From Ignavibacteriota bacterium (GTDB lineage: Bacteria > Bacteroidota > Ignavibacteria > Palsa-1295), in NCBI GenBank assembly GCA_003151825.1, contig PLYO01000024.1, positions 1-40,619 of the forward strand: a stretch of DNA of 40,619 nucleotides, in the 5' to 3' direction. Positions 6,902-40,409 of this stretch are shown here, piece by piece. The notes under the pieces are model-generated. The model made no database searches. It was not told the origin of the DNA and was given only the letters and a program-made list of their open reading frames with translations. The translations under genes were made by a program, and so were the position numbers. Positions within the stretch are counted from its first letter, which is position 1; each line of letters opens with the position of its first letter.

Positions 6902-8662
6902 ATGGCAAATACAAACGGGAAAGCTACTATGAATGGGGTGAGGGCGGCGGGGTCGCCGCCCACCACGCGGTCTTTTGAAGAGAGCAAGGAATACCAGGAA
7001 GCGTATCTGCTCTGGAAAGCCAAAGCGGGCGCGAGTCCGGAGACGGGGATGAAGTTCACGACGCTTTCGGGGAAAGCGCTGGATACGCTTTATTCGCCAT
7101 CCAGCGATGGGAAGGACGTGCGCAGCACGTCCCTACAAGATCCGGTCGAGTTCATTGATAATATCGGTTTTCCGGGGCAGTTCCCATATACGCGGGGCAT
7201 CCATCCGAATGGTTACCGTGGAAAAATTTGGACGATGCGGCAGTTCGCGGGATTCGGCACTCCGGAAGATACGAACGAGCGATTCAAATATCTGCTGGCG
7301 CATGGTCAGACGGGTCTTTCGACCGCGTTCGATCTGCCGACGCTCATGGGCCGCGATGCCGATGACCCGTGGTCGGAAGGCGAAGTAGGGATTTGCGGCG
7401 TAGCGATTAGTTCCTTGAAAGATATGGAGACGCTGTTCGCGGGCATTCCCTTAGATAAAGTTTCCACTTCGATGACGATCAATTCGCCGGCGGCGATGAT
7501 CTTTGCATATTATCTTTGCGTGGCGGAGCAGCAAGGAGTTCCGTTCAACAAATTGCGCGGAACGTTGCAGAACGATATTCTGAAAGAGTACATCGCGCAG
7601 AAGGAATTTATCTATCCGCCGGAACCATCGATGCGGATCATTACGGATATGATCGAATTTTGCACAGCGGAAGTTCCGCAGTGGAATCCGGTTTCGGTCT
7701 CCGGCTATCATATCCGCGAAGCCGGCTCGACGGCCGCGCAGGAGCTGGCCTTCACGCTGGCCGATGGCTTTTGCTATGTCGAGCATTGCGTAGCACGCGG
7801 CATGGATGTGGATGAATTCGCGCCGAGGTTATCGTTCTTTTTCAATTCGCATATCGACTTTTTCGAGGAGATCGCGAAACTCCGCGCCGCGCGAAGAATT
7901 TGGGCGAGACGTTTGAAAGAAAAGTATGGCGCGAAGACGGCGAAATCGCTTTCCCTAAGGTTCCATACGCAAACAGCAGGATGTTCATTGACAGCACAGC
8001 AGCCGGAGAACAATATCGTCCGCACCGCTTACGAAGCGCTTGCAGGAGTGCTCGGTGGTACGCAATCGCTGCATACAAATTCAATGGACGAGACGCTTGC
8101 ACTGCCAAGCGAGAAAGCCGTGAAGATCGCGCTCCGAACTCAGCAGATCTTGGCGTATGAAATTGGCGTTATCAATACGGTCGATCCGCTCGGTGGCTCG
8201 TACTTCATTGAATCGGAGACCGATCGTTTGGAACGCGAAGCGAATGTGTATTTCGATCAGATCGATGCGTTGGGCGGTGTGATTGCGGCCATCGAAGCAG
8301 GATTTTTCCAGCGCGAAATAGCCGATGCGGCCTATCGCTATCAGATCGAATTAGACAAGAAAGAGAAATTCATCGTCGGCGTGAATGAATTTGTCGAAAA
8401 AGATGAAAAGATCGATATTCCGATCCTGCAAATTTCTCCCGAAGTGGAGCGATCCCAGAAAATAAAACTTGCGGAAGTGCGAGCGAACCGTTCCCAATCA
8501 GCGGTGGATGAATCCATCGAGGATATTCGCGCCGCCGGATTTGGACACACGAATCTCATGCCATTATTCATCCAAGCGGCACGGAATTATGTAACGCTTG
8601 GCGAAATGGTGGATACGCTGAAAGTTCCATTCGGGGAATACACGGAATCGGTGGTATTTTGA
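6902..8662 (+). CDS. Methylmalonyl-CoA mutase large subunit (catalytic domain only)
   Basis: Acyl-CoA mutase catalytic (TIM-barrel) subunit, interconverting methylmalonyl-CoA and succinyl-CoA (or isobutyryl/butyryl-CoA) with adenosylcobalamin. Family motifs include FPYTRG (94-99), TMRQFAGFG (111-119), then [13 protein letters not shown], and a C-terminal region with HTNSMDE and [10 protein letters not shown]. It ends at 586 residues, just after the barrel, without the DxHxxG cobalamin-binding domain. It is therefore the large partner of a two-subunit mutase, and the B12 subunit must be encoded elsewhere. ATG 6902 is chosen over TTG 6890 because GAGG lies 6 bases before it. Two palindromic repeats sit in frame within it (6942-6961 and 7114-7132). 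The stop overlaps the next gene. Whether the substrate is methylmalonyl- or isobutyryl-CoA cannot be told from the sequence read here. Confidence 0.93.
6942..6961 (+). repeat. Palindromic repeat within the mutase N-terminus
   Basis: GGGCGGCG (6942-6949), a 4-base loop, then CGCCGCCC (6954-6961). It encodes residues of the segment [11 protein letters not shown], which precedes the conserved start of the mutase domain. The unit looks like a dispersed GC-rich hairpin repeat that has been accepted in frame. Confidence 0.6.
7114..7136 (+). repeat. Palindromic repeat inserted in frame in the mutase
   Basis: GGACGTGC (7114-7121), GCA, then GCACGTCC (7125-7132) followed by CTAC. It encodes the extra segment [10 protein letters not shown] at about residues 70-79, between the conserved LYSP and the segment leading to FPYTRG. 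Mutases of this family normally have only a short linker there. The CGTCCCTAC tail is shared with intergenic units at about 6384, pointing to a common repeat family. Confidence 0.65.
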
Positions 8663-12056: not shown

Positions 12057-12058
12057 CT

Positions 12059-16172: not shown

Positions 16173-17931
16173 GGACAAAAAGCTTCGGCTTCTGGGCGGA
16201 ACGGCGCTCGCCGTCGCGACTGTGGCGACGCGTCTGCCCATTCACGCGAAGACTTTTTTCGAATTCGACTCGATCAATTTCGCGGTCGCGGCCATTCGTT
16301 TCAACTTAGGTGAAGTTACGCCGCACATGCCGGGATATATCCTTCACGTCCTGTTCGGACGATTGCTATACTTGCTTACGTGCGATCTCAATCTTGCCTA
16401 TATCTGGGTGAGTATTTTGCTTTCGATCGGGGCAGTCCTTTTTTTGTGGCGCGCGGCGGCGGCGTTGCGTGGCGAGCGCGTGGGCATCATCGCCGCCCTC
16501 CTCTGGCTCACCACGCCGCTTTTTTGGTTCCACGGCGCTGTGGCGGCGATCTATGCGGAGGAAGCATTTTTCTCAAGCCTTTTGCTTTATCTTGGAATCA
16601 AAGTAATTGCGAATTGCGAATTACGAATTATCGGTGACAGGTTAGGCATAAGGAATGACAACGAACAACCTCATTCATCATTTGTCATTCGTCATTTGTC
16701 ATTCGTCATTTACTTCATCACGTTTTCGCTTGCGGGCGCAGCTCGGCCCACGAGCCTGCTCTTTTTTCTGCCCGCTGCGATTTTTTTGATATGGAAACAG
16801 AAACCTTCCCGGCTGCTTTTGTCAGCTGCGATGGCGTGTTTTGTTGCTGTAACCGCACTTTGGATATTTGAACTCTTGCGGGAATCGGGTGGGAGTTCAA
16901 CGTATTGGTCCTATTTCATCGCGGAGAATAATTTTAAGACCCAATCGATCCTGTTCGGGAACTCGTGGCAAAGCCAGTTCGATACACTTAGTAAATGTGC
17001 ATTTTATCTGCCACTTTCGATGGGAGCAGGAACCATCGCGCTCGTGGGAATAATGGCGTGCTTTCCACGGCGGGTGTTTGCGTTCTCCCGAGCGCACCTT
17101 GGCAATGTCAAGCTGCATTTTATTGTGCTTCTGGCGCTGCCGGCTCTTCTTTTTTATGCGTTTATCTTTTTTATGAAGGCAGCGTATTTATTAAATGTCG
17201 TGCCTTCGGCGATTCTTATCGTTGCGGTGCTGCTCGATCAAGCGGCGATTTGGATTGCAGAAAGACAAAAGGGACGGTTGAAGAACAAAAAAAGACTTAC
17301 GCGACCAATCATCACGAGGAATGTCGCAGTGCTTACCGGCATAGTAATAGTGTTGAATGTTGTATGGTTTTTCGTTCCATGGCCCGGAACGGAACAGAAC
17401 ATTTACGATAATGAAGACACCCGCAATTCCTTCATTCACGGCGCACTGCACCGCTATGAGCATTCGGAATCGCGGATGCTTACGCTTGCGAACCGCGCTT
17501 TGGAATACACAAACGTCTCGGGCATTCGTGCCGTCGATAGCTTGAATACCATGACGATGAGCGCCTTGCTCGCAAATGGCGCCAATCATTCCGGCGAGGT
17601 CATTCTTGCTTCGTGGTGGTACCGATGGTGCTATCTTCTACTGCCAAATGCCACGACCTACGATCTTGAACTCGACCCAGTTCATCCCGGCTCGTTATGG
17701 GTTGGGCGCTCGCATGAAATGAAGCGAGTCAATTTATATGATTCGGTAATTCGATTTCATTCTTCCGCGCCGGTGCTGCTTCTGTTGCGCCGCGACCGGC
17801 CCGATTTTGAACAGGTCGCCAGTCAAGTCCATCTCGAACGGCTGCCGCTGCCAGAATATCTCGATATTTATAAAATTCTCGATTCAACATTCGTTCTGAA
17901 ATGGGGGAATAGGATGTTCAGCAGAGAGTGA
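16162..17931 (+). CDS. GT-C family membrane glycosyltransferase with in-frame repeat insertion
   Basis: 589 residues. FFEFDSINFAVAAIRFNLGE at the first loop, then HMPGYILHVLFGRLL, resembles DUF2723/PMT-type GT-C proteins; the acidic D36 is the likely catalytic candidate. Helices follow to about residue 410 and a soluble tail ends the protein. Residues about 151-183 are not family-like: they are translated genomic heptad repeats (NCELRIIGDRLGIRN and SSFVIRHLSFVI) placed between two helices, just before the conserved GAARPTSLLFFLP helix. The frame is kept throughout, so the gene is probably functional. ATG 16162 overlaps the upstream gene by 11 bases. Last gene of the operon. Confidence 0.82.
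   Translation: MDGRDKKLRLLGGTALAVATVATRLPIHAKTFFEFDSINFAVAAIRFNLGEVTPHMPGYILHVLFGRLLYLLTCDLNLAYIWVSILLSIGAVLFLWRAAAALRGERVGIIAALLWLTTPLFWFHGAVAAIYAEEAFFSSLLLYLGIKVIANCELRIIGDRLGIRNDNEQPHSSFVIRHLSFVIYFITFSLAGAARPTSLLFFLPAAIFLIWKQKPSRLLLSAAMACFVAVTALWIFELLRESGGSSTYWSYFIAENNFKTQSILFGNSWQSQFDTLSKCAFYLPLSMGAGTIALVGIMACFPRRVFAFSRAHLGNVKLHFIVLLALPALLFYAFIFFMKAAYLLNVVPSAILIVAVLLDQAAIWIAERQKGRLKNKKRLTRPIITRNVAVLTGIVIVLNVVWFFVPWPGTEQNIYDNEDTRNSFIHGALHRYEHSESRMLTLANRALEYTNVSGIRAVDSLNTMTMSALLANGANHSGEVILASWWYRWCYLLLPNATTYDLELDPVHPGSLWVGRSHEMKRVNLYDSVIRFHSSAPVLLLLRRDRPDFEQVASQVHLERLPLPEYLDIYKILDSTFVLKWGNRMFSRE
16604..16711 (+). repeat. Heptad-type repeat block inserted in a glycosyltransferase gene
   Basis: The left part is built of GCGAATT/ACGAATT units (16604-16630); the right part, 16671-16711, of TCATTCATCA/TTTGTCATTCG units. 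The total is about 108 bases, a multiple of three, so the reading frame survives. The same unit families occur outside genes at 2365-2423, 6490-6515 and 27686-27700, which marks the block as a genomic repeat rather than native coding sequence. Confidence 0.75.
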
Positions 17932-19203: not shown

Positions 19204-19267
19204 GCGAACGAAAACAGTGAACGTGCAGCAATCGTCCGTGACTGGTTGGTAACCATGCGCCGGTAGT

Positions 19268-19324
19268 CGTGACCTTCAGGTCACGGTTGCGAATTAAAAC
19301 CACGCCCTGACCTGAAGGTCACGG
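19268..19324. repeat. Palindrome doublet between the T9SS gene and the permease
   Basis: CGTGACCTTCAGGTCACG (19268-19285) and TGACCTGAAGGTCA (from 19308) are two copies of one GTGACCT-NN-AGGTCAC palindrome, 22 bases apart, with outer flanks ending in GTAG/CTACC. The same doublet arrangement lies at 22296-22348. The layout resembles REP/BIME elements. The 150 bases between the two genes hold nothing else recognisable. Confidence 0.8.
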
Positions 19325-19353
19325 CTACCAGGAAAGAGACGCCCGCAGCGCAG

Positions 19354-22300
19354 CTATTTGACGAGTATAATCTGTTTCGAACGAATATTTTGTCCGCACG
19401 TGAGCCCAATCGCCGAGGCACGCAGTGTGAGCGGGCCGGAGGGTAGGTTCGCTGGCAGAGAAAGCTCTCGATCGTTGGAGCCGGCGGCGCAGGAAAGCTC
19501 GCTGTTCCAAAGAGGACGGCCAAGCATATCGAAGAGGGAAAGAGTAACATTTCCAGCCGTCGGCATCAGCATTACAATATCTAAACTGCCATCGCTCGAA
19601 ATTTCGGCGCGGTCGATCACCAGCGATTTGCCGAGCAGAGCGGTGCGTAAAACCGAATCGCCGCAAAGATCCTTCCCGAGGAACATCGCCGAAGCTATGG
19701 GGGAGGCAAAGACGATCGGGCAGTTTGCATACGTCCCCGCAAGGGAACTGGTAATCGCAATTGGCGAATACGAAGAATCGGCCACGAACGTCTCGAACTG
19801 CAAATGCGCCAGTATTCCCGAAACCGTTTGAAGCGATACGAACGAGGTGAAGGCCAACGTATCCGTTGAAATGCCAAGCATGGGTTTGGGCGGTGGCCAT
19901 GTGCCGGTGAGCGTACCGGCGAGGTCCGCTCCACTATATGTCAGCACATCATGGTTGTAAGTTATGTACAAATCGAATTGCTTCACATCCGCGCTGGCGG
20001 GAAGCCCGGAGAGACTTACATCGGCCAATGCCTGATTGCCCAGCGAGACAGGAGAAGTCGAGACCGTAAGCACGGTATGCGTGGTATCGGGAACTTGAAC
20101 GACGGGAAACTCAAGCGTGAGATCGCGCGTGAGGGTGTCGCCACACCGAAGATACGAGATGCGAACATGAATCTGGGACTCGGCACTTACCTTTTGTGGA
20201 TCGATCTGCAAGAGGAGCAGCGTATCGCTTCCCGCGAGCGCCACGGGATTGGTCACGGATAACTCGTAATCGCCTGTGGCTTGACCGCTCTCCGTATAGC
20301 GGACATTGGTGAGTAACCCACCCGGCGTTGAACCGAGGAAATGTTCCGTGGCTGTATCGAACGTGATTTCTATCTTCGAAAGAACGAATTCATTCCCCGG
20401 GGTAATGACGGAATCCGTGGTAACAGCAATGGTGAGTGGTTCGCAGACGGCGGCGATGGAATTCCCATTGCCGACGATGGAAAGCAGAATGTGCCGGTCG
20501 AGCGAATCAGTCGAGGGATGGATGGCGAAGGTCACCGGCTGGATGGTAAGGATTTCGGAGTCATCCCCGCAATAACCGGGATCGGAATTTTTTCCGACCG
20601 TCGTGGCCGCGACCGATTTCCATCCCACGAATACTATTCGAAAGAGATCGCTGCCCGTGATGAATGGAGATCCATACATCGTTACCGTAATATTCCCCGG
20701 CGTTCCAGAATCTACCGTATAATTCCCAGCTAATGGAATCGCGCCCGGTTGGAGCCCCGCGATATGAAGCGATGCGGGATCGAATGTGATTGGAACAGTA
20801 AGAGAAATTACATTTTCCGAAGGGAGAATAGGGGTCCCGAGCGAAACACTCACGATCTCATCCGCGCATGTCTCGGCGGAATCGGCTTGAAGGAGAATAG
20901 CATGAGAAACAGTGTCGCGGGGCAGCGGCTCGCCAGCCGTGCCGGGCATGAACGAGTAGGCGTCCCCTGCATCGAAGCCGGCAACAATCGCAAAGATGGG
21001 ATCGGGCGAGATGATTTTGTGCTCTCCCGGGCGGACCGAAGGATTAATCGCGCTGAACGCTCCGCCGTTAATAACGGACGATTGCGCGCCCGTAAGCGTG
21101 AGCGGCGTTCCGTCGAGCGTGGCCCGGCCAAGATCGGACGTTTGGCAAATGATCGGAACCCAGTGCTCGAAGGTCCCATCCAGGAGTGGCGTGTTCCAAA
21201 CAAGCGTATCGGTATAATAGGATGTATCAAGGACGGTCACGAGCGTCGGATCGCCGACGGGATTGCCGAACGCAAAAAAATCGAACATGCTGCCGCGAGT
21301 CAGTTGATGCGCTTCGACCGGCACGGGATGATTTTGCAGATCGAAGGTATGGATTTCCGCCGTGCCGGAAAATTCGGCTGCAAGACGGCCATTGGTCGAG
21401 TTCGAAAAGCCATTATCGAACTTCGCGTAAAAATCGCGGTCACTCGTCAGGACGATCTCGACGCCCGAATCCCCATCTCCAAGCGGTTGAACGAGAAAAT
21501 GCGAACCCCACCATTTTTTCCCAATGAGTTCATCGAGCAGTTCGTTGCACGACTGATCCCCGACGGGCACATAGCCGCACGTCAGTCCCGAAATCACGCT
21601 GACCGGTTTCGTCGATTGTATTATCGAGCCCGAAAGCGATGGATCCGAGGGATGGTCCGATGTATCCGCTTTCACGATATAACACTCGCCGCGACCCAGC
21701 AGGACTGTGAACGGCACACTCTCCGGCAGGCCATTCAATGTATTGACGGAAGGCGTAATGGTAACGAGCGTGGAATCGGACGCGGCGGTCACCAGAAATT
21801 CGTTGCAATTGCGCTCGGAAGGCGTGACAATCGTGTCCGCAGGGTCGTTCCAAATACCCCATCCGAAGGTTACGTAGCTCGTATCGAGCGCATTATCGGG
21901 AAGAATTTGCGTGGCGTCACCGGCATCCGGAACGAAATCATGCAGTACGAGATTGACCGGCTCCGTCGTATGCACGAGCAATCCTTTGTTTGACTTCCCA
22001 AGATCGTGCAGAAGCATAAGATTATACGGAAGATCGATAATCGTTGCCGCGCCGGGGATAAATGTGAAGTCCTGCGTATAGCCGGAAGTGGAACTAATCA
22101 CGCCGCAGCCCGAATACGCACTCACGACGGTCAGCGTGAGAGTCGTAAGCTGCTGGGCGCTATCGCCCAAAAGAAGATCGGGGCCTTGCACGATGCCAAA
22201 GCTGAAGTTTTGGCCTGCGCGAGGAAGCGTGGTCTGAGCGTTCGCAAAACGCGGGGCTGCAATTACTCCCAAGACGAACAGAAGCACACTTGTAACCGTG

Positions 22301-22395
22301 ACCTTCAGGTCACGGTGTGCGCCTTGCGAGCGTGACCTAAAGGTCACGGCTACGATCGAACGAGTAGATAAAAACGACGTGAACGATCGGAGCAT
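19354..22395 (-). CDS. Large T9SS-secreted protein with IgGFc-binding-like domain
   Basis: 1013 residues. A signal peptide with core SVLLFVLGVIAAPRFANAQ ends at about residue 53. The next 400 residues resemble the IgGFc-binding domain (PF17517-like: SGYTQDFTFIPG, SNKGLLVHTTEPVNLVLHDF). Then come three or four beta-sandwich segments of cohesin/T9SS-surface type, and a C-terminal T9SS type A signal (LSLFDMLGRPLWNSELSCAA and a KQIILVK end). It should be exported, carried across the outer membrane by T9SS and attached to the surface; an adhesin-like role is inference. Residues about 14-35 are encoded by a palindrome doublet, which lengthens the region before the signal peptide core. MLRSF at 22395 is the only start upstream of it. 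Confidence 0.85.
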   Translation of the reverse strand: MLRSFTSFLSTRSIVAVTFRSRSQGAHRDLKVTVTSVLLFVLGVIAAPRFANAQTTLPRAGQNFSFGIVQGPDLLLGDSAQQLTTLTLTVVSAYSGCGVISSTSGYTQDFTFIPGAATIIDLPYNLMLLHDLGKSNKGLLVHTTEPVNLVLHDFVPDAGDATQILPDNALDTSYVTFGWGIWNDPADTIVTPSERNCNEFLVTAASDSTLVTITPSVNTLNGLPESVPFTVLLGRGECYIVKADTSDHPSDPSLSGSIIQSTKPVSVISGLTCGYVPVGDQSCNELLDELIGKKWWGSHFLVQPLGDGDSGVEIVLTSDRDFYAKFDNGFSNSTNGRLAAEFSGTAEIHTFDLQNHPVPVEAHQLTRGSMFDFFAFGNPVGDPTLVTVLDTSYYTDTLVWNTPLLDGTFEHWVPIICQTSDLGRATLDGTPLTLTGAQSSVINGGAFSAINPSVRPGEHKIISPDPIFAIVAGFDAGDAYSFMPGTAGEPLPRDTVSHAILLQADSAETCADEIVSVSLGTPILPSENVISLTVPITFDPASLHIAGLQPGAIPLAGNYTVDSGTPGNITVTMYGSPFITGSDLFRIVFVGWKSVAATTVGKNSDPGYCGDDSEILTIQPVTFAIHPSTDSLDRHILLSIVGNGNSIAAVCEPLTIAVTTDSVITPGNEFVLSKIEITFDTATEHFLGSTPGGLLTNVRYTESGQATGDYELSVTNPVALAGSDTLLLLQIDPQKVSAESQIHVRISYLRCGDTLTRDLTLEFPVVQVPDTTHTVLTVSTSPVSLGNQALADVSLSGLPASADVKQFDLYITYNHDVLTYSGADLAGTLTGTWPPPKPMLGISTDTLAFTSFVSLQTVSGILAHLQFETFVADSSYSPIAITSSLAGTYANCPIVFASPIASAMFLGKDLCGDSVLRTALLGKSLVIDRAEISSDGSLDIVMLMPTAGNVTLSLFDMLGRPLWNSELSCAAGSNDRELSLPANLPSGPLTLRASAIGLTCGQNIRSKQIILVK
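22296..22348. repeat. Palindrome doublet inside the 5' end of the large T9SS gene
   Basis: CCGTGACCTTCAGGTCACGG (22296-22315) and CGTGACCTAAAGGTCACG (22331-22348) are paired palindromes of the same family as 19268-19324. They fall in the first 35 codons of the gene at 19354-22395 and encode VAVTFRSRS and HRDLKVTVT-like residues ahead of the signal-peptide core. Confidence 0.8.
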
Positions 22396-22472: not shown

Positions 22473-22600
22473 GACAGGTTAAAGCCTGTCCTACAATAAC
22501 ACGAAAAAGTGAAAAAGGTAACGGCATGATCGATCAAGCGGTCATTCGAGCCGAATTCACCCAGTATAATTACCGTTTACCCCAGCATGATCGATCATGC
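22473..22600. repeat. Palindromic repeats upstream of the alpha-toroid/DUF354 pair
   Basis: GACAGG (22473-22478) and CCTGTC (22485-22490) with flanking CTAC form a common dispersed hairpin repeat. GCATGATCGATCAAGC at 22524-22539 and the perfect 16-base palindrome GCATGATCGATCATGC at 22585-22600 follow. A third copy, GCATGACCGATCATGC, lies at 24812-24827, after the two genes. The 190 bases between the T9SS gene and the alpha-toroid gene hold nothing else I recognise. Confidence 0.75.
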
Positions 22601-22604
22601 GCCA

Positions 22605-23732
22605 ATGGCAAGCATTCAAACCGCCCTGCAAGAATTGTATGGATGGGCAACGCGGCAGGATTTTGCCGGGTACGACCCGCATGATCTTTTGTCATCGCCC
22701 ACACTGAGGCGAATAAAAAATCCTTTTGCCCGGCTTCTGGCGTTGCAGCTTGGCCGACGGTCAGCTATTAATTTGCACAGGCTGCTTCACGTGCCGCGTG
22801 CGGAGAATCCGAAAGCGCTCGCGCTTTTCATCATGGGATTACTCCGAGCGCGCGACAAAGCTGTGCTCAATTGGATGGAAGAAGCCGAGCGACTCGCCAA
22901 GCGCCTGCTTGCTTCGATGCACGAAGATGGCGGATGGGGCTACCCGTTTCCCTGGCAATCGCGCACCCATTATCTTTCCGCGAATACTCCAAACATCGTG
23001 ACGACATCGTTTGCCGGCAATGCGCTCATCGAATTGAACGATCATTTACCCTCCGATATTTGGATAGAAGCAATACACCGGTCCGCGAATTATATTGTAT
23101 CTCTCGAAACCCGGAACCCGAAACCCGGAACCCAAAACCAGGAACCCGCTTTTGGTTACGCCGAGAACGATCCGCAAATCGTTTTCAACGCCTCGCTGCT
23201 CGGCGCGGAATTTTTGTTGAAGGCTGGGCAATTGCTTTCTAATCAAACGTATATCGAGTTAGCTCGCCGCGCTGCGGAATTTGTTGCGGATCATCAGCGC
23301 GCGGATGGCGGATGGGATTATGGCCTCGAAAAATCGCAGCGATGGACCGATTCGTTTCACACCGGATTTGTGATTTGCTCGATGAAGGCAATCGCTGATG
23401 TAGTGGGAGATGATCGCCTTCGGCAATCGGCGGTGCGCGGATTCGAGTATTATCGCCAAACGTTTCTCGAACCGAATTATGCCATTCGCTATTTCCCCGG
23501 CAAGTGTTATCCCATCGACGCGCACGCGCTTGGGCAGGCGATGGTAACTTTTACCGCGTTCGGCGAGCACGAAACAGCGCAACGCATCTGCGAATGGTCG
23601 ATCCGGCACATGCGCTCTCCGAAAGGCTATTTTTATTATCAACGCCATCGGCTTTTCACCAATCGCATTCCTTATATGCGCTGGTCGAACGCATGGATGT
23701 TTCGAGGGCTAAGTTCTTTGGAGCAACGATGA
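22605..23732 (+). CDS. Alpha-toroid (six-hairpin-type) protein of unknown function
   Basis: About 375 residues, soluble. It has repeated helical-hairpin motifs of the terpene-cyclase/glycoside-processing toroid type: MHEDGGWGYPFPWQSR, later HQRADGGWDYGLEKS, then DSFHTGFVICSMK and DAHALGQAM. The family occurs in bacterial polysaccharide and glycolipid regions, but its reaction is not established. Residues about 168-181 (ETRNPKPGTQNQEP) are a translated degenerate AACCCGG repeat. ATG 22605 is preferred because ATG 22587 lies inside a palindrome that also occurs outside genes; neither has a clear ribosome-binding site. The stop overlaps the next start (ATGA), so it works with the DUF354 gene. 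Confidence 0.75.
   Translation: MASIQTALQELYGWATRQDFAGYDPHDLLSSPTLRRIKNPFARLLALQLGRRSAINLHRLLHVPRAENPKALALFIMGLLRARDKAVLNWMEEAERLAKRLLASMHEDGGWGYPFPWQSRTHYLSANTPNIVTTSFAGNALIELNDHLPSDIWIEAIHRSANYIVSLETRNPKPGTQNQEPAFGYAENDPQIVFNASLLGAEFLLKAGQLLSNQTYIELARRAAEFVADHQRADGGWDYGLEKSQRWTDSFHTGFVICSMKAIADVVGDDRLRQSAVRGFEYYRQTFLEPNYAIRYFPGKCYPIDAHALGQAMVTFTAFGEHETAQRICEWSIRHMRSPKGYFYYQRHRLFTNRIPYMRWSNAWMFRGLSSLEQR
23105..23148 (+). repeat. AACCCGG-type repeat inserted in the alpha-toroid gene
   Basis: Four near copies of GAACCCGGAA/CGAAACCCGG occur in a row, encoding RNPKPGTQNQEP. The segment joins two helical hairpins (NYIVSLE and AFGYAENDPQ) and is low in complexity. It is a second kind of repeat, unlike the palindromes, that has been kept in frame. 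Confidence 0.7.
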
Positions 23733-24772
23733 AACGCCCTCTAATTTGGATCGATCTCGAAAACTCGCCACACGTCCCGTTTTTCGTGCCGATTATCGAG
23801 GAACTGGAGCGCGCGGGTTGTGAGGTTATTTTGACCGCACGCGACTTTGCGCAAACGCGCGAGCTTGTAGCGCGCGCCGGACTGAATGCGCGTATCATTG
23901 GCGGAGAATGGGGAAATTCCACTCCGATAAAATCATTCGGACTGCTCCTACGAGCAATCCGTTTAGCCCGGAGGATGCGAAGCCGTAACATCTCGCTTTC
24001 AGTTGGACATGGTTCCCGCGGGCTGCTCCTTGCCTCGAAAATGCTGCGCATTCCCGTTCTGGAACTTTACGATTATGAAGGCGCGAGCGTCGGTCTCTTC
24101 AACCGCCTGAGCACGTATGTGATGACGCCCGAGGCGATTTCATTCTCGACGCTTGAAAAACTCGGTCTCGTTAAAGAAAAACATCTTACCTATCCCGGAC
24201 TCAAGGAAGATGTTTATGTTTCGAATTTCCAGCCGGATGATTCCATCCTGCGTGAGTTGAATCTGGATCCATCGCGCATTATTATAACCATTCGGCCGCC
24301 TTCGCGCACGGCACATTACCGGAGCGAAGAATCGTTTCGATTGTTCGATGAGCTGATGCAGTTACTGCGTGAGCGGGATGATGTTCAAATCGTATTTCTT
24401 CCGCGAGAGAAAAACCACCCCCCAGCCCCCTCCTACTCCGCTTCGCTACGCAGGAGTGGGAGTTTTATCATTCCACCAACAGCCATCGATGGGCTGAACC
24501 TTCTTTATCATTCCGATCTTGTCATTTCCGGTGGCGGGACGATGAACCGCGAAGCCGCCGCGCTCGGCGTTCCGACGGTAACAATTTTCAAAGGACCGAT
24601 GGGCGCCGTGGATAAATGGCTAATCGATTCGCGCAAAATGATCGCGATTAATAATGCTGAAGAAATCCTGGCAATGTTGCGGAAACGAGAACGGGCAGCA
24701 ATCCGGGAATCGAGCGCGACAAAAGAGATTATCATTAAAACGATACTCCGGCTCGCGGATAGATCTGTTTAA
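23729..24772 (+). CDS. DUF354 glycosyltransferase-like protein
   Basis: 347 residues from ATG 23729, which overlaps the upstream stop (ATGA). It matches DUF354 (PF04007): IWIDLENSPHVPFFVPIIEE start, SVGHGSRGLLLAS, then LELYDYEGASVGLFNRLSTY, and the GT-B-like SGGGTMNREAAALGVPTVTI nucleotide-sugar-binding turn. Likely transfers a sugar or acts on a UDP-sugar in the cytoplasm; the family reaction is not settled. Residues about 229-247 (NHPPAPSYSASLRRSGSF) are a translated repeat inserted after FLPRE. A longer frame starting at 23504 is a shadow of the preceding gene. Confidence 0.85.
   Translation: MKRPLIWIDLENSPHVPFFVPIIEELERAGCEVILTARDFAQTRELVARAGLNARIIGGEWGNSTPIKSFGLLLRAIRLARRMRSRNISLSVGHGSRGLLLASKMLRIPVLELYDYEGASVGLFNRLSTYVMTPEAISFSTLEKLGLVKEKHLTYPGLKEDVYVSNFQPDDSILRELNLDPSRIIITIRPPSRTAHYRSEESFRLFDELMQLLRERDDVQIVFLPREKNHPPAPSYSASLRRSGSFIIPPTAIDGLNLLYHSDLVISGGGTMNREAAALGVPTVTIFKGPMGAVDKWLIDSRKMIAINNAEEILAMLRKRERAAIRESSATKEIIIKTILRLADRSV
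24413..24473 (+). repeat. Hairpin repeat inserted in the DUF354 gene
   Basis: CCACCCCCCAGCCCCCTCCT is followed by ACTCCGCTTCGCTACGCAGG and AGTGGGAG. ACTCC and GGAGT pair around a loop containing GCTTCGC-like bases. The wording is that of a dispersed repeat seen in many genomes and it is unlike its surroundings in composition. It adds about 19 residues and keeps the frame. Confidence 0.65.
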
Positions 24773-24811: not shown

Positions 24812-24890
24812 GCATGACCGATCATGCGCGCAAAGACGTGCTTAAAAGAATTAATCAGAGGTTCCCTAACTCTTAACTCTTAATTCTTAA
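24812..24890. repeat. Third GCATGAYCGATCATGC palindrome and TTAACTC/TTAATTC repeats
   Basis: GCATGACCGATCATGC at 24812-24827 is the downstream partner of the copies at 22524 and 22585. At 24860-24890 AACTCTTAACTCTTAATTCT, then TAATTG, gives a run of seven-base units between two convergent genes. No terminator-like hairpin with a T-run is clear in this 120-base gap. Confidence 0.65.
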
Positions 24891-24893
24891 TTG

Positions 24894-28601: not shown

Positions 28602-28616
28602 CGGGAATGGGATGAA

Positions 28617-30098: not shown

Positions 30099-30100
30099 AT

Positions 30101-32916: not shown

Positions 32917-32921
32917 TAATT

Positions 32922-34196
32922 ATGAAGAATTACTTCCGGCTACTTCTCCTTACTATCGCACTGCTTTGCTCCGCTGACCAACATGCCCGCAGTCAATGGG
33001 TTCACGCAACCGTGCCTTCGAAGGCCAGTGCAAATTGTTTTGCTGTGATCGGCACAAACCTTTTTGCAGGTACGAGCGATACAGGTGTGTGCATTTCGAC
33101 GAACAATGGGACCGACTGGACTCGTGTCAGCGCCGGCCTGACTCATTGTCCGGTCACCGCACTGGCCGCAATCAGCGCGAATCTCTTTGCCGGACTCTAC
33201 GACTATCAAATGACTGGTCTGGGCGGTGTGTTTCTCTCTACCAATAATGGAACAACATGGTCGAAGACGAGCCTGAAAAACGCCGACATCAAAGCTATGG
33301 CCGTCAGCGGCACCACCCTCTGGATTGTAACTGGGGATAACCGAATCATGTTTTCCTCGAATAATGGTTCGACCTGGAAATCTTCCTCGAACGGCCTGAC
33401 GAGTTCCAGCCTATCAGCGATCGCTTCGGACGGTGTGAACGTATTCGTAGGAACCGCCGTCGAGAGAAATACTCCTGACGTAGGAGTATTTCTCTCGACG
33501 AATGGTGGCACGAGCTGGAAGCAATCCAATAACGGTTTGACGAATACGACAATTTACTCGCTGTCGGCGAGTGGCACGAATGTTTATGCCGGGGCTTTCA
33601 TTGGCGACAATGCAGTGTATGCCTCGACCAATAGCGGCACACAGTGGGTTGGAGAGGGTCTCGCAGGTTATATCGGCACAGCTCTGGCAGTGAGCGGTTC
33701 AAATCTATTCCTCGCTACTGCGGACGGAATAGATCAGGGTTCAGTCCAACTCACGACCAACAACGGAACGACATGGATGGAGGTCAACACCGGCTTGTCA
33801 ACGGCTTATATCAACGCGATTGCGATTGGGGGTTCATATCTCTTTGTTTTTTCCAACGATGGTGTATGGCGGCGACCGCTCGCCGAAATGCCCGTGGATG
33901 CCGTAGAGCCTTCAATGCAGGCGCAGCACGCAATTACCACATACCCCAACCCCTTCTCTCAATCCACCCAAATCACCTTCACCTCACAAGCAGCCGGATA
34001 TGCGGAGGTATCCATTGTGAATATGCTTGGCGTGGAGGTTGCGCGGCTTCTAACGGGTGAGTTGGGTGCGGGAGAGCATAGCTTCCTGTGGGATTGTAGG
34101 GGCGCATTGCAATGCGCCCCTACCGATGGGGTGTATGAATGCCTCGTCCGGATGAATGGGCAGGTGGAGACGCTGCCGGTGGTAATGATTCGGTAA
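32922..34196 (+). CDS. T9SS-secreted BNR-type beta-propeller protein, shorter paralog
   Basis: 424 residues. Signal peptide with core YFRLLLLTIALLCSADQHAR, ending SQ. Six copies of the same GTNLFAG...GVFLSTNNGT-W unit, then DGVWRRPLAEM as in the upstream paralog (SSVWRRPLSEM). The T9SS tail is different from the paralog's and near-identical to the tail of the Kelch gene at 39171-40409: YPNPFSQSTQITFTSQ, then VSIVNMLGVEVARL. A 28-base palindrome lies in frame within the tail (CRGALQCAP), and a 19-base inverted repeat (33458-33500) lies within repeat 4. Start ATG 32922; little Shine-Dalgarno signal. Confidence 0.88.
   Translation: MKNYFRLLLLTIALLCSADQHARSQWVHATVPSKASANCFAVIGTNLFAGTSDTGVCISTNNGTDWTRVSAGLTHCPVTALAAISANLFAGLYDYQMTGLGGVFLSTNNGTTWSKTSLKNADIKAMAVSGTTLWIVTGDNRIMFSSNNGSTWKSSSNGLTSSSLSAIASDGVNVFVGTAVERNTPDVGVFLSTNGGTSWKQSNNGLTNTTIYSLSASGTNVYAGAFIGDNAVYASTNSGTQWVGEGLAGYIGTALAVSGSNLFLATADGIDQGSVQLTTNNGTTWMEVNTGLSTAYINAIAIGGSYLFVFSNDGVWRRPLAEMPVDAVEPSMQAQHAITTYPNPFSQSTQITFTSQAAGYAEVSIVNMLGVEVARLLTGELGAGEHSFLWDCRGALQCAPTDGVYECLVRMNGQVETLPVVMIR
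33458..33500 (+). repeat. 19-bp perfect inverted repeat inside the BNR gene
   Basis: CGTCGAGAGAAATACTCCT at 33458-33476 is the exact complement of AGGAGTATTTCTCTCGACG at 33482-33500; the loop is GACGT. The right arm encodes the conserved GVFLST of the propeller unit. The left arm encodes VERNTP, extra residues that no other unit in either propeller gene has at that point. It therefore looks as if the right arm was copied in reverse to make the left arm. Confidence 0.85.
34096..34123 (+). repeat. 28-bp perfect palindrome in the T9SS tail
   Basis: The half site is GTAGGGGCGCATTG (34096-34109), immediately followed by its full complement to 34123. It encodes the segment CRGALQCAPT. Other T9SS tails have a short loop such as DG-x-D-x-x-G-x-x-VPSGVY here, so the palindrome replaces or extends that loop. 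An identical copy is at 40309-40336. Confidence 0.9.
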
Positions 34197-36137: not shown

Positions 36138-38906
36138 ATGAACGATTCACTTCTCAAGCGTGCCGCGATTGCGATCGCGCTCGGCCTTATCTTTAATGCC
36201 GCGCCCGGCGTAAGTCAGGCGCAACGGATTATTTCGTATCAGGGTCTTGTCACCGACGCCACTAACGCGCCGCTGATCGGATTGCATGCGCTCACGCTCA
36301 GGATTTACACGGCAGATACCGGAGGTGCGCCCATCTTTGAGGAGTTGCAAAAGGTGACGTTCTCATCCGAGGGAATATTCAACGTTCTCATCGGCAATTC
36401 CAAGCCTCTGCTGCCGCTCAAGGTCACGAACCCCGCGACCGATCGTTATTACCTCGGCGTTCTGGTTGATGGCTCGCCGGAGCTTGTCCCCCGCTCGCCT
36501 CTTTCGGACGTTCCCAGTGCGTTCTTCGCGGACACGGCCGGGTTTGCACGCAACGCATCTTATGCCGATACCGCCGCCTTTGCTCGCGCCATCGATCCAT
36601 CGAGCCTGAACATCGTGCCCACGACGGTCAATGGTCTTTCCAATGCTGTGATTCTCACCGGAGGTGGGTTCACGACCGTAAGCAAAAGCGGCGATACCAT
36701 TGCGATCACTTCGTCCGAGCCGCCGGCCATTCAGGACCTGATGAATTTTGACGGGATCCTTACCATCCTTGCCCCCACCGGCCCAGCCACGGCGATCACG
36801 ATCACGGACTCCGGCATTACGACGGCAAAACTTGCCGGTGGTTCCGTTACCACTGCAAAGCTTGCCAATGGAGCGGTCACGAATGCCAAATTATCGAGCG
36901 GCGCCGTGACGTTTGACAAGGTCGCGTCCGGCGCTTCCACGGCGGGGCTGGTCCTTGCCGCCGATGGCGCGGGCGGCTCGTTGTGGCAATCTGCGACCGC
37001 CTCGGCTATCTCGTTGCCATATACTGGGACAGCATCCACGAGTTCGCCTATCTTCAGCCTTATCAATACCGGAACCGGCGAAGCAGGATATTTCCAAATC
37101 AATAGTGCTGCTAATGCAGCGGTTGCCGCACTACAAGCAACGACGAACGGCATCGGAAGCGCCGGAGCGTTCAGCATCACCAACAACGCCAGTAGCGCGA
37201 TCGCTCTTTCGACCGCGACCAACGGCTCCGGCGCAAGCTTGAACGCGACAACGACCGGGACGGGTAGCGCAGGGGTGTTCAGCGTCACCAACAACGCCAA
37301 TAGCGCAGTCGGTCTTTCGACTTCCACGAATGGTTCCGGCGCAAGCTTGAACGCAACAACGACCGGAACGAGTAACGCGGGTGTGTTCAGCGTCACCAAC
37401 AACGCCAATGGCGCAGTCGGTCTTTCGACTTCCACGAATGGTTCTGGCGCAAGCTTGAACGCAACAACGACGGGAACGGGTAGCGCAGGTGCCTTCATTG
37501 TCACGAATGCCGCAAACGCAGCCAATGGGCTGACGTCATCGACCAACGGCTCCGGCATAAGCGTGGCTGCATCGACGACCGGCACGGGCGGCGCGGGCAG
37601 TTTCACTGTCAGTAACGCCGCAAACACTGCCAATGCGCTTTCTGGCACGACTAACGGCACAGGCTCCGCGGGACTTTTTCAGATTACGAACGCGACAAGC
37701 GCTGCAAACGCTCTTCAAGCCACGACCGGGAGTAACTCGAACAGCGCGAGTGCCGTCTTCGGGCGGGCTACGAACGTAAATGGCGGGGCTTACGGTGTCT
37801 GGGGTGAGGGAGATGGAGCGGGGGCTGATGCTATCGTGGGATTTGCCACTAACGCTTCAGGCGCCGGCGTCGGTCTATATGGCTTGTCCGAAGGAACTAC
37901 CGGAGTCGGACTCTATGCAGAAGCCGACGGATCGGGCGGAACGGGCGTCTATGGGTTTGTTCCAAGCTCTGCCTCAGGTTATGGAGTAAAAGGAGCGAAC
38001 AACTCCACGACCGGCGTGGCTGTGCTTGGGCTTGATTCAAGCTCGAACTACGCTGTTTGGGGATATAATAAATGGACGGGCATTGCCGTTTATGGGCAAG
38101 CCGCCAGCACAACGACGACATGTACCGGTGTCGAAGGCACTGGATACTGGGGGGTCCAGGGATATACAACATTCCCCGGTGGCTTTGGCATGCTTGGCTC
38201 GGCGAGTGGTTCAACCGGGTATGGTGTTCTCGGGATGACGGGTTCGACAACGGGTCCCGGAACAGGCGTTTATGCTTATGTCGGCAACGCCACGTTCTCG
38301 ACTCCGCCCCCATCTATCGGCCGCTCGAATGCGCTCATTGCCGACTATGGAGGCACCGGTACGTCCACTGTGACCGATAGCAACATCGCGATCTTTTGCA
38401 AAGGCGCGACGCGAGAATTTCGTTTTGCCAACAATGGCCAGGCATACACCGTAGCCGGCGGCGCATGGAATTCCGGTGGCGCGGATCTGGCCGAATCGTT
38501 CAATGTCGTCGGCGCGAAATCGGAGTATGAGTCGGGCGATGTGCTCGTGCTCGATGCGCAAGCGACCTATCACGTCGCAAAATGCTCGACGCCGTATTCT
38601 AAGTGCGTGGCCGGAGTCTATGCCACCGCGCCCGGAGTGCTGCTGGGCTTCGATGGCATGAGCGGCGATACGGCAGCGAACAACGCGAAAGTTCCCATGG
38701 GCGTGATCGGCGTTATTCCTACGAAAGTTTCCGGTGAAAATGGGCCGATCGAGGTCGGCGATTTGCTCGTGACGAGTTCGATCCCCGGTCATGCCATGAA
38801 AGGCGACCCGGACAAGCTCCGCTTTGGCAATATCCTCGGCAAAGCCATGGAGCCGTTCAACGCGAGCGGCACCGGAGTGATTAAAGTCCTGGTCGGGAAA
38901 TACTAA
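36138..38906 (+). CDS. Secreted repeat-rich fibre-like surface protein
   Basis: 922 residues. Signal peptide LLKRAAIAIALGLIFNAAPG, ending SQAQ. N-terminal domain RIISYQGLVTDATNAPLIG and PRSPLSDVPSAFFADTAG, typical of large secreted proteins of FCB/planctomycete type. Then AKL-containing short repeats (ITTAKLAGGSVTTAKLANGA), then a long low-complexity zone of 36-residue units (TNGSGASLNATTTGTGSAG), and a zone of YGVWGEG/GVYG units as in tail fibres. The C-terminal domain carries GGADLAESF, YHVAKCSTPYSKCVAGVYAT and LLVTSSIPGHAMKGDPDKLR, resembling intramolecular chaperone-type ends of fibre proteins. No T9SS tail. Likely a trimeric or beta-helical surface fibre. Confidence 0.8.
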   Translation: MNDSLLKRAAIAIALGLIFNAAPGVSQAQRIISYQGLVTDATNAPLIGLHALTLRIYTADTGGAPIFEELQKVTFSSEGIFNVLIGNSKPLLPLKVTNPATDRYYLGVLVDGSPELVPRSPLSDVPSAFFADTAGFARNASYADTAAFARAIDPSSLNIVPTTVNGLSNAVILTGGGFTTVSKSGDTIAITSSEPPAIQDLMNFDGILTILAPTGPATAITITDSGITTAKLAGGSVTTAKLANGAVTNAKLSSGAVTFDKVASGASTAGLVLAADGAGGSLWQSATASAISLPYTGTASTSSPIFSLINTGTGEAGYFQINSAANAAVAALQATTNGIGSAGAFSITNNASSAIALSTATNGSGASLNATTTGTGSAGVFSVTNNANSAVGLSTSTNGSGASLNATTTGTSNAGVFSVTNNANGAVGLSTSTNGSGASLNATTTGTGSAGAFIVTNAANAANGLTSSTNGSGISVAASTTGTGGAGSFTVSNAANTANALSGTTNGTGSAGLFQITNATSAANALQATTGSNSNSASAVFGRATNVNGGAYGVWGEGDGAGADAIVGFATNASGAGVGLYGLSEGTTGVGLYAEADGSGGTGVYGFVPSSASGYGVKGANNSTTGVAVLGLDSSSNYAVWGYNKWTGIAVYGQAASTTTTCTGVEGTGYWGVQGYTTFPGGFGMLGSASGSTGYGVLGMTGSTTGPGTGVYAYVGNATFSTPPPSIGRSNALIADYGGTGTSTVTDSNIAIFCKGATREFRFANNGQAYTVAGGAWNSGGADLAESFNVVGAKSEYESGDVLVLDAQATYHVAKCSTPYSKCVAGVYATAPGVLLGFDGMSGDTAANNAKVPMGVIGVIPTKVSGENGPIEVGDLLVTSSIPGHAMKGDPDKLRFGNILGKAMEPFNASGTGVIKVLVGKY
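37167..37680 (+). repeat. Tandem 108-base repeats in the fibre gene
   Basis: The segment GCGTTCAGC/GTGTTCAGC recurs at 37167, 37275, 37383, 37491 and 37599, exactly 108 bases apart; a shorter unit follows at about 37674 and one of 78 bases precedes. Units two and three (from 37275 and 37383) are nearly identical, with only a few substitutions, which marks recent duplication. Copy number is likely to vary between strains. Confidence 0.9.
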
Positions 38907-39009
38907 CCGCGCCGGAACCGGGATTACGCGGATTAGAACGGGTTACGCGGGCTGACTCTCTATGAGTCATTCATGCGTTGCACTTTTGCGCGCGTTCTGT
39001 CTTTCAATC

Positions 39010-39084: not shown

Positions 39085-39170
39085 AGCAAAGGCTCACCTT
39101 TCACACAAATCCCAAAGCGTGGCACGGAAACCGCAAAATTTATCGTTCAACACTAAAGCTACCAAGGATT

Positions 39171-40409
39171 ATGAAATACATTTTTACTATCTCATTGATC
39201 GTTCTTAGTCTCTGCGCCACTCGTGAAGGCCGGTGTCAAGGATCTTGGTCCACGGATTCGTCGAGTGGTTTCACTCCGGACGGTGCCGCCGGTTCAGCTA
39301 TTCTGAACGGTAAGATTTATATTATTGGTGGCAGCCCATATTTTCAGGGAATTACTAATACCGTTCAGGTTTTCGATCCAACCACACACAAATGGACGCA
39401 AGGCCCCGATATGCCCACGACACGAGTATCCCTTACTTGCAGTGCATTAAATGGAAAAATTTACGCTTGCGGTGGAGCAACCGATACTGGCGCCAATGTT
39501 TACACGCATGTCATGGAAATTTTCGACTCTGCAACGAATGGCTGGAGCGAAGGGCCACCATTACTGATCGCACGTAGTGGACACGCGGCAAGCATAGTCA
39601 ATGGTAAACTGTATCTAATTGGAGGGTATGGAATCGGCAACAATATTATTCTCGACTCTGTTGATGTATTTGATCCATCTACGAATAGTTGGAGTTCAGC
39701 AGCTCCAATTCCAACAAAGCGAGCTGAGCTCACGTCGAGTGTATTAGCTGGAAAGATTTATACAATAGGTGGTTATAGTTCGGATGAACGTCCCATGGAT
39801 ACGGTGGAAATTTTCGATCCTGTTTCCAACTCCTGGAGCGCAGGCCCTTCCATGCCTTTAGCACTAAGCGATTGCGCCTCATGCACGTTAAATGGTAAGA
39901 TTTATGTTTTTGGCGGGATTCAAGAAACCATTGATTCAAGGGTTCTTGAAATCTTCGATTCCGCCACTAATAGTTGGAGTCTTGGTCCAGATATGCCAAC
40001 AGGCCGAATGGACTTGATGTCAGCAACGGTGAATGGCCAAATTTATGCAATCGGTGGGATTGGCAACCCGGATGCTGTAAGTGTCAACGAGGTCTTCACC
40101 CCGGGGCCGCTGGGCGTGGCGGAGAGCGAGGCTGCGGGCAGTGGCCTTCGCGTGTTTCCAAATCCCTTCACCCAATCCACCCAAATCACCTTCACCTCGC
40201 AATCGGCCGGTTATGCGGAGGTATCCATTGTGAATACGCTTGGCGTGGAGGTTGCGCGGCTGTTTTCGGGTGAGTTGGGCGCGGGAGAGCATTCCTTCGT
40301 ATGGAACTGTAGGGGCGCATTGCAATGCGCCCCTACCGATGGGGTGTATGAATGCCTCGTTCGAATGAACGGGCGGGTTGAGACGCTGCCGGTGGTATTG
40401 ATGCGGTGA
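39171..40409 (+). CDS. T9SS-secreted Kelch beta-propeller protein
   Basis: 412 residues from ATG 39171, with AAGG six bases before it and a good signal peptide (IFTISLIVLSLCATREGRCQ). Six Kelch units, each with NGKIYxxGG followed by VEIFDPxxNSW-xxGPxMP, which should close one six-bladed propeller. The T9SS tail begins VFPNPFTQSTQITFTSQSAG and is almost the same as that of the BNR gene at 32922, including the palindrome-encoded CRGALQCAPT. A longer frame from 38973 crosses the stub described above and is not used. Likely an outer-surface binding protein; ligand unknown. Confidence 0.88.
   Translation: MKYIFTISLIVLSLCATREGRCQGSWSTDSSSGFTPDGAAGSAILNGKIYIIGGSPYFQGITNTVQVFDPTTHKWTQGPDMPTTRVSLTCSALNGKIYACGGATDTGANVYTHVMEIFDSATNGWSEGPPLLIARSGHAASIVNGKLYLIGGYGIGNNIILDSVDVFDPSTNSWSSAAPIPTKRAELTSSVLAGKIYTIGGYSSDERPMDTVEIFDPVSNSWSAGPSMPLALSDCASCTLNGKIYVFGGIQETIDSRVLEIFDSATNSWSLGPDMPTGRMDLMSATVNGQIYAIGGIGNPDAVSVNEVFTPGPLGVAESEAAGSGLRVFPNPFTQSTQITFTSQSAGYAEVSIVNTLGVEVARLFSGELGAGEHSFVWNCRGALQCAPTDGVYECLVRMNGRVETLPVVLMR
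40309..40336 (+). repeat. 28-bp perfect palindrome in the Kelch protein T9SS tail
   Basis: An exact copy of the palindrome at 34096-34123, at the same distance from the stop codon, so it was duplicated together with the tail. Confidence 0.9.

What the first reader, a model, noticed from the sequence alone, without database searches (positions are those of the whole stretch)
6902..40409. Many genes carry short genomic repeats kept in frame as extra protein segments
At least six genes contain segments that are not family sequence but translated dispersed repeats: the mutase (6942-6961, 7114-7136), a GT-C enzyme (16604-16711), the alpha-toroid protein (23105-23148), the DUF354 protein (24413-24473), the pre-signal region of the large T9SS protein (22296-22348), and two T9SS tails (34096-34123, 40309-40336). 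The repeats belong to at least four unrelated types: perfect palindromes, heptads, AACCCGG decamers and ACTCC hairpins. Each adds a whole number of codons. Rickettsia palindromic elements are the closest known parallel, but there one or a few families dominate. Here a genome-wide tolerance, or even a spreading mechanism, seems at work.
Basis: partly seen in the sequence, partly recalled or inferred. Interest (0 to 1): 0.75.

Follow-up and report, generated by a model that had tools for sequence, protein, structure and literature searches.

The report
Mobile DNA repeats translated inside proteins
This bacterium's genome is full of tiny hairpin-shaped repeats, and one family sits mostly inside working housekeeping genes, where it is read as extra amino acids, much as Rickettsia's palindromic elements are but in an unrelated lineage.

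Summary
The window is one contig of a 3.59 Mb Bacteroidota genome (near Ignavibacteria) carrying at least eight palindromic REP-like families plus 7-bp tandem arrays. Against same-genus orthologs, the segments in the mutase (+10 codons), GT-C enzyme (+23) and toroid protein (+5) are real in-frame gains. In DUF354 (+2) and the twin T9SS tails (about +4 against paralogs) the repeat mostly replaced native sequence. The large secreted protein's segment may lie before its true start.

The striking part is the family of the DUF354 "ACTCC hairpin". In about 1.02 Mb sampled, 48 of 67 of its sites lie inside predicted genes, against 17 of 88 sites of seven other families in 0.78 Mb. Hosts include intact TruA, QueA, TsaD, ValS, ArgJ, MnmE and transketolase. 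All five stop-free frames are used, so no one peptide is favoured. Sibling species have 1 to 24 strict copies, this genome 81.

Best reading: short, stop-poor, REP-like elements spread and persist where proteins tolerate extra residues. Rickettsia palindromic elements and intragenic GTAG/CGTC REPs are the known parallels. A mostly intragenic family with neither tag, in this lineage, is a new variant. How it moves is not shown.

The parts
6902..8662 (+). Methylmalonyl-CoA mutase family gene carrying two repeat segments
   Evidence: Pfam PF01642, E 2e-213; matches in 31 of 31 genomes searched, own included
6942..6961 (+). Family D hairpin (stem GGGCGGCG, loop GGGT) with tail CCACGCG, in the variable N-terminal tail of the mutase; weakest of the families
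   Evidence: 6 hairpin+CCACGCG places in about 1.02 Mb, 0 for the reversed tail; 4 with this loop, 0 for the reversed loop; exact core 2 places against 2 for the reversed control
7114..7136 (-). Family B REP (GTAGGGACGTGCTGCGCACGTCC) read in frame within KDVRSTSLQ; +10 codons against sibling G004; sibling G001 keeps a decayed copy at the same place
   Evidence: 78 copies genome-wide
16605..16630 (.). Heptad array AATTGCG in the GT-C enzyme gene 16162-17931
   Evidence: TRF, period-7 scan
16671..16711 (.). Second heptad array TCATTCG/TCATTTG in the same gene; with the first, +23 codons against the median of six same-genus orthologs
19262..19329 (.). Family A inverted pair, intergenic
22292..22353 (.). 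Family A inverted pair at the 5' end of the large secreted protein gene 19354-22395 (reader: T9SS; Pfam IgGFc_binding and Cohesin), readable as VAVTFRSRSQGAHRDLKVTVT; may lie before the true start
   Evidence: 67 copies genome-wide
22585..22600 (.). Family K palindrome GCATGATCGATCATGC overlapping the start of the toroid gene
   Evidence: 20 copies in 777 kb, reversed control 0
23105..23148 (+). Heptad array AACCCGG in the toroid gene 22587-23732; +5 codons against the median same-genus ortholog
24414..24462 (+). Family E element (ACCACCCCCCAGCCCCCTCCT-loop-AGGAGTGGGAG) in the DUF354 gene 23693-24772, read as NHPPAPSYSASLRRSGS; net about +2 codons, so mainly a replacement
34096..34123 (.).
40309..40336 (.). 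Same palindrome in a second such tail whose last 250 nt are 89% identical to the first
2363..2423 (.). Intergenic heptad array (AATGATG) with its inverted copy
24867..24892 (.). Intergenic heptad array TAACTCT

Best explanation
The segments are copies of short selfish repeats that move within the genome. Hairpin units of about 20-40 bp, in several families as inverted pairs (REP/REPIN-like), and separately 7-bp tandem arrays, arise at many places, including inside genes. Copies that break a gene are lost; copies that keep the frame, hold no stop in that frame and fall where extra residues are tolerated survive, are translated, and then decay or trim neighbouring residues. Family E survives inside genes far more often than the others, partly because it is short and stop-free in five of six frames. 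Shown: recurrence, presence/absence between sibling orthologs, intact host proteins, many frames used. Inferred: translation, movement by transposition (perhaps by a Y1 transposase of the RAYT/IS200 type in trans), and that the tolerated sites are surface loops.
For: Recurrence with about zero reversed-pattern controls (the E pattern is the exception, 21 reversed hits to 23, so E counts rest). Segments absent or different in same-genus orthologs at the same place with flanks aligning; median net gain 10.5 aa, range 0-24, over 18 sites. Hosts intact: 9 of 10 scanned E hosts exceed an NCBIfam cut-off, PGK matching along its length below a bifunctional model's cut-off; 10 of 10 others match Pfam families. 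E sites in genes: 21 of 30 in the first sample, 27 of 37 in a second set; other families 17 of 88 (Fisher 8e-7 for the first sample). Twenty-two E1 copies in genes use all five open frames, 0 the stop frame. Patchy expansion, siblings in the order G002, G005, G004, G006, G001, G003: E 81 here against 12, 5, 12, 24, 9, 1; A 67 against 1, 2, 29, 10, 3, 7; B 78 against 30, 8, 5, 8, 46, 16, with B controls of 0-2. Six Y1 genes: two over the RAYT cut-off, two over the IS200 cut-off, two below. The long families F, G, H and stop-rich A are mostly intergenic.
Against: None of families A, B, C, E, F, G, H, J, K lies within about 1.5 kb of the six Y1 transposase genes (D not tested), so the usual RAYT-REP link is missing. 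No target-site duplication or target motif was established; flanks were only viewed. DUF354 and the T9SS tails are replacements, not clean insertions. Families B (short, stop-poor) and K (short) have only 3 of 11 and 6 of 18 sites in genes, so size and stops do not fully explain E; against C alone E is not significantly different (p 0.38). The mutase structure model was too weak around the insert to show a loop. Translation is not shown.
Confidence: 0.85

Rival explanations
1. Family E is steered into coding sequence (by target choice, by coupling to transcription, or because its insertion product is usually a multiple of three), so its in-gene excess is not just what survives selection.
For: Genic-to-intergenic density ratio 0.53 (95% CI 0.31-0.91) over both sets, against 0.05 for seven other families together. 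Random-phase insertion would cap the ratio near one third (my inference). Family B, short and stop-poor, does not reach it.
Against: The interval includes one third. Stem-loop lengths of 23, 25, 26 and 35 nt all occur in genes, so a fixed triplet length is unlikely. All open frames and both orientations are used.
Confidence: 0.2
2. The inserted segments are kept because they do something useful in the protein (e.g. a flexible linker or interaction tag).
For: They sit in core enzymes, and some look shared with a sibling at the same place (QueA in G001, TsaD and ROK kinase in G006).
Against: Five different peptides are made from one DNA unit; at most aligned sites half or more of the siblings lack the segment; hosts are functionally unrelated.
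Confidence: 0.05
3. Chance palindromes, low-complexity coding sequence or gene-calling artefacts.
For: Gene calls are from my own simple caller; estimated contamination of the genome is 6.57%; the exact 6942-6961 palindrome is no more common than its reversed control; N-terminal cases (first ArgJ copy, HemH, large secreted protein) may lie before the true start.
Against: Near-zero controls for the other families, ortholog alignments on both sides of the segments, and NCBIfam alignments that run across at least one insert in all ten hosts scanned; in Pfam at least four of ten do.
Confidence: 0.03
4. The 7-bp arrays arise by local slippage, not by insertion of a mobile unit, and are a separate phenomenon from the hairpins (compatible with the best explanation for the hairpins).
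For: Constant period with many unrelated units; slippage has been proposed for heptanucleotide repeats (PMC4679880, passages).
Against: Similar units (GAATTAC/GAATGAC) recur at distant sites, and arrays at three places lie in a longer shared sequence (window near 6487, L030 near 12243, L046 near 960).
Confidence: 0.5

Closest known systems
Rickettsia palindromic elements (RPE)
   Same: Palindromic repeats in frame inside many conserved housekeeping genes, several groups in one genome, absent from orthologs of other bacteria, one host (guanylate kinase) shown active (PMC2229807 and PMC3767692, passages).
   Different: Those papers give 100-150 bp for RPEs in general (RPE-4 and RPE-6 equal short CGTC REPs, PMC3733652); family E single units have 23-35 nt stem-loops with an ACCACCCCC side sequence. 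This is a Bacteroidota genome, not Rickettsiales. Sequence kinship was not tested.
GTAG/CGTC-tagged REPs, including intragenic ones (Di Nocera 2013, PMC3733652)
   Same: Families A, B, C have 20-40 bp palindromes with a GTAG end and A and B form inverted dimers; intragenic REPs are reported there, most in Opitutus terrae and R. conorii.
   Different: Family E shows no GTAG or CGTC end (by eye), and most of its sites are intragenic, whereas most REPs there are intergenic.
REPINs of Pseudomonas (PMC3116915)
   Same: Inverted doublets of hairpins with a short spacer (families A, B, F, G, H and a minority of E sites).
   Different: In P. fluorescens SBW25 only 14 of 1,067 occurrences of the core 16-mers overlap genes (passages); here 48 of 67 family E sites lie in genes. 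No RAYT gene was found beside the tested families.
Heptanucleotide tandem repeats (cyanobacteria, Beggiatoaceae; PMC4679880)
   Same: Period 7, many loci, mostly intergenic.
   Different: Many unrelated 7-mers in one genome, some inside genes as whole-codon gains.

Membership tests
GTAG REP | 20-40 bp palindrome with GTAG at one end | tested here: met
   A, B and C copies show GTAG/CTAC ends (by eye); E, F, G, H do not show GTAG
GTAG REP | High copy number in the genome | tested here: met
   A 67, B 78; C only 9 places at up to 3 mismatches
GTAG REP | RAYT gene flanked by the same repeat | tested here: not met
   Six Y1 loci of about 3.3 kb scanned for families A, B, C, E, F, G, H, J, K: no hit; RAYTs exist in the genome
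REPIN | Inverted doublets with short spacer | tested here: met
   Pairs of A, B, F, G, H and of some E copies, e.g. L034 2793/2850, L039, L041; most E sites are single units (37 units in 30 sites, 46 in 37)
REPIN | Extragenic placement | tested here: not met
   Family E 48 of 67 sites in genes; largely met for A, F, G, H
Rickettsia palindromic element | In-frame insertions in conserved protein genes absent from distant orthologs | tested here: met
Rickettsia palindromic element | Unit length about 100-150 bp | tested here: inconclusive
   Family E single stem-loops are 23-35 nt and pairs roughly 70-100 bp by eye; but RPE-4 and RPE-6 are themselves short (PMC3733652)
Rickettsia palindromic element | Sequence kinship to RPE groups | not tested
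   RPE consensus sequences were not compared
Heptanucleotide tandem repeats | Head-to-tail 7-bp units in excess over other periods | tested here: met
   19 arrays against 0-1 for each other period from 4 to 13

The most novel reading that the evidence does not exclude
Family E is a mobile element adapted to live inside genes: short, stop-free in five of six frames, and placed or kept in coding sequence beyond what purifying selection alone would leave, in a Bacteroidota lineage; different families bloom in different sibling species and overwrite one another at the same protein loops.
Probability: 0.25. Interest if true: 0.8.

Novelty: new variant of a known kind. Interest (0 to 1): 0.63.

Why it matters
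It widens the known range of protein-coding palindromes beyond Rickettsiales and scattered intragenic REPs, with a family whose copies mostly lie in genes, among them genes of core metabolism, tRNA modification and translation. With six same-genus genomes at hand, the filled and empty sites make the old question of how selfish DNA becomes new protein sequence directly testable, enzyme by enzyme. It also warns annotators that such segments are insertions and not family sequence.

Tried and rejected
RAYT-REP linkage: looked for families A, B, C, E, F, G, H, J, K beside the six Y1 transposases, none found; the inverted repeats listed around them do not look like the families. One RAYT-like gene (L005) is flanked by two look-alike palindromes of its own.

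The first pattern for family E was too loose: its reversed control gave 21 hits to 23. Replaced by stem-paired patterns (the exact-stem version has control 0). Four C-rich hits (two in L029, two in L030) I judged spurious by eye; the final counts come from the pattern, not from that list.

Structure prediction of the mutase: mean pLDDT 65, the region of the insert below 50, so inconclusive on whether it is a loop.

Literature: nine of ten paper searches used. They listed nothing on such repeats in Kapabacteria/Ignavibacteria and no mostly intragenic REP family beyond the works cited; the library lacks most subscription papers, so this is not proof of absence.

Net-gain table covers 18 sites. 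The N-terminal cases, first ArgJ copy and HemH, and the BadF-like gene were aligned but left out because the start or boundary is unclear. GlpC lies at a site variable in all siblings. For DUF354 the script's anchors gave 0; +2 is my count on the alignment.
Full report
What the window is. It is contig C17 of a 3.59 Mb, 51-contig genome. By record titles, its mutase's nearest named relatives are Bacteroidota and Ignavibacteria MAGs. Six same-genus genomes (G001-G006) and further family members are held.

Observation. I call the hairpin families A (GTAG-CGTGACCT..AGGTCACG), B (GTAG-GGACGTGC...GCACGTCC), C (GTAG-GGGCGCAT.GC.ATGCGCCC), D (6942-6961, constant tail CCACGCG), E (ACCACCCCC...CCCCCTCCT-loop-AGGAGGGGG), F, G, H (GTCATTCCCGCG, GTCATTGCGAGG, GTCATCCTGAGC), J and K. 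Copies/reversed-control hits in the 777 kb sample: A 31/0, B 15/0, C 8/0, F 18/0, G 23/0, H 19/0, K 20/0, J 10/1 and 9/1. The looser E pattern of that call had 23/21 and was replaced; the exact-stem pattern has 81 copies genome-wide against 0. The exact core of D has 2 places against 2 for its reversed control; only its hairpin-plus-tail motif stands out, 6 places against 0. Seven-bp tandem arrays number 19 (4 in genes) against 0-1 for each of periods 4-6 and 8-13, and 0 in triplet-shuffled sequence.

Are they insertions? Mutase: G000 reads [29 protein letters not shown] where G004 reads YTPSDETPANYLANVGFPG, +10 codons by my count. G001 has the same element decayed (GGACGTGCGCGGCACATCCCTAC); G002, G003 and G005 have other short segments there; G006's match begins further on; members of other genera of the family are short there. 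GT-C: +23 codons against the median of six same-genus orthologs, made of two heptad arrays and the stretch between; toroid: +5. DUF354: the element gives about 17 residues where orthologs have a different stretch, net about +2 against four of five and shorter than the fifth. T9SS tails: 40 matches to this tail in the genome; of the 26 I aligned, two carry the palindrome, net about +4 residues against their nearest paralogs, and these two tails are 89% identical over 250 nt, so one event is likely. The A pair at 22292-22353 can be read in frame ahead of the signal sequence, but the start is uncertain and orthologs were not compared. The D hairpin lies in a variable N-terminal tail.

Beyond the window. 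Thirteen gene pieces carrying E elements elsewhere were compared with orthologs. In TruA, MoeB/ThiF and the second site of the DEDDh exonuclease all six same-genus orthologs lack the segment. In NrnA, QueA, TsaD, ValS, ArgJ (second copy), the first DEDDh site, ROK kinase and PurL, half or more lack it, while one to three siblings carry another or a related segment at the same place. In the GlpC-like protein the site is variable in all. The first ArgJ copy and HemH are N-terminal and less certain. An old-yellow-enzyme-like gene holds an E pair worth +24 codons against four siblings; a GT-C gene holds an A pair (+16) and a GalT-like gene a K unit (+11). At 13 of 18 sites at least one sibling is itself 4 or more residues longer than the shortest (my reading), so the same places are hit or kept repeatedly. 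Hosts look intact: of ten E hosts scanned with NCBIfam, nine exceed a cut-off (TruA, QueA, TsaD, ValS, ArgJ, MnmE, transketolase, HutH, CoaBC), PGK matches along its length below a bifunctional model's cut-off, and all ten alignments run across at least one insert. Ten more match Pfam families, at least four of them across the insert. The names NrnA, GlpC-like, PurL, MoeB, GalT and old yellow enzyme are mine, from the domain matches or from recall.

How unusual is family E? With a stem-paired pattern and sites merged within 150 bp, 21 of 30 sites in the sample of 40 contig starts plus window, and 27 of 37 in 20 regions fetched around other copies, lie inside predicted genes, in sequence 83% and 82% coding. 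The second set was chosen because it holds E copies, not by gene content. Seven other families together: 17 of 88 (A 2/16, B 3/11, C 3/6, of which two are the twin tails, F 0/11, G 2/14, H 1/12, K 6/18). Fisher p is 8e-7 for E (21 of 30) against all, 0.03 against B, 0.02 against K, and not significant against C alone (0.38). The genic-to-intergenic density ratio is 0.53 (0.31-0.91) for E over both sets and 0.05 for the others. Length and stops explain part: intergenic F, G and H sites have median lengths of 78-133 bp and A is stop-rich. But B is short and stop-poor and still mostly outside genes. The 22 in-gene copies of the commonest unit use rev-2 8, fwd-2 6, rev-1 4, rev-0 3, fwd-1 1, and fwd-0, which contains a stop, 0.

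Spread. Siblings in the order G002, G005, G004, G006, G001, G003. Strict E copies: G000 81; siblings 12, 5, 12, 24, 9, 1. A: 67; 1, 2, 29, 10, 3, 7. B: 78; 30, 8, 5, 8, 46, 16, reversed controls 0-2. The commonest E core (up to 2 mismatches) was found in 7 of 148 genomes drawn from the phylum, siblings not among them, with more than one copy only in G000 (71) and two genomes of one other genus (20 and 7, all at 2 mismatches among those listed). Different families bloom in different species. This argues for copying within genomes. Six Y1 transposase genes are present: two pass the NCBIfam RAYT cut-off, one falls below it, two pass the IS200 cut-off, one falls below. None of the families tested flanks them, so the mobiliser is unknown.

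Interpretation. Best supported is selfish spread plus a filter: an inserted unit survives in a gene only if it keeps the frame, has no stop in that frame and lands where extra residues are tolerated. The variety of frames and hosts argues against a selected peptide. Whether E is also steered toward genes is open, since the confidence interval of the density ratio reaches the one-third ceiling that frame alone would set.

Comparison. RPEs of Rickettsia are the nearest in behaviour; passages seen in PMC2229807 and PMC3767692 describe 100-150 bp units, several groups, in-frame insertions in conserved genes, solvent-exposed placement, and an active guanylate kinase with an insert. PMC3733652 (abstract, the sections on GTAG families and genome distribution, and passages) describes GTAG/CGTC REPs, mostly intergenic, with intragenic cases most numerous in O. 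terrae and R. conorii. PMC3116915 (passages) reports only 14 of 1,067 REP 16-mer occurrences overlapping genes in SBW25. On heptads, passages of PMC4679880 and PMC8161180 were seen. Families A, B and C fit GTAG REPs by form; E shows neither tag. I therefore rate the whole a new variant of a known kind.

Limits. Gene calls are my own dicodon caller. The genome has 6.57% estimated contamination and two ArgJ genes, so a few contigs may come from a close relative. No expression data exist here. The resemblance of E-like peptides to repeats in cyanobacterial and proteobacterial annotations is recalled and was not tested.

Noticed in passing
window 33945-34194 and 40158-40407: The last 250 nt of two different T9SS-type genes are 89% identical, as if the sorting tail was copied between genes.
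   Followed up: partly
window 37137-37568: 108-bp tandem repeats (about 3-4 copies) inside the 922-aa gene 36138-38906.
   Followed up: no
window 8716-13747: Three consecutive related genes (GT-C-like by my reading; the first has no Pfam match), apparently tandem duplicates.
   Followed up: no
window near 6487; L030 near 12243; L046 near 960: A longer dispersed sequence in which a heptad array is followed by a shared stretch (GTGGGGAGGGGAATCG... or a variant) recurs at three places.
   Followed up: no
L356:5223-5353: The MnmE gene carries four E units in a row (VPLLEKEGVNNGNPLLFKGGANNGNPLLFKEG...).
   Followed up: no
L367:5635-6357: A DUF559 domain and an RNase H domain share one reading frame with an E element at the junction, as if the repeat fused two genes.
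   Followed up: no
L005:1366-1393 and 1989-2024: A RAYT-like gene is flanked by two similar palindromes (TGGCASCGGGARTATA...), possibly its own target.
   Followed up: no
L186 (G003 TsaD): A sibling's TsaD carries a different in-frame segment, VAVGFSTRSIVEERHRGLKPTATT, that looks like another repeat pair, at the site where this genome has an E element.
   Followed up: partly
L035:13681-14736: Ferrochelatase has a second 9-residue insert (LLKKEWAAR) absent from the eight relatives aligned, which looks like a decayed E element.
   Followed up: no
L030:12660-12690; L033:714-744; L052:15134-15161: Heptad arrays also lie inside three other predicted genes of the genome; the L033 one looks like an NAD synthetase (my reading).
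   Followed up: no
G000 C27 and C11: Two ArgJ genes, 72% identical over the compared piece, on different contigs; may reflect a contaminating related genome.
   Followed up: no
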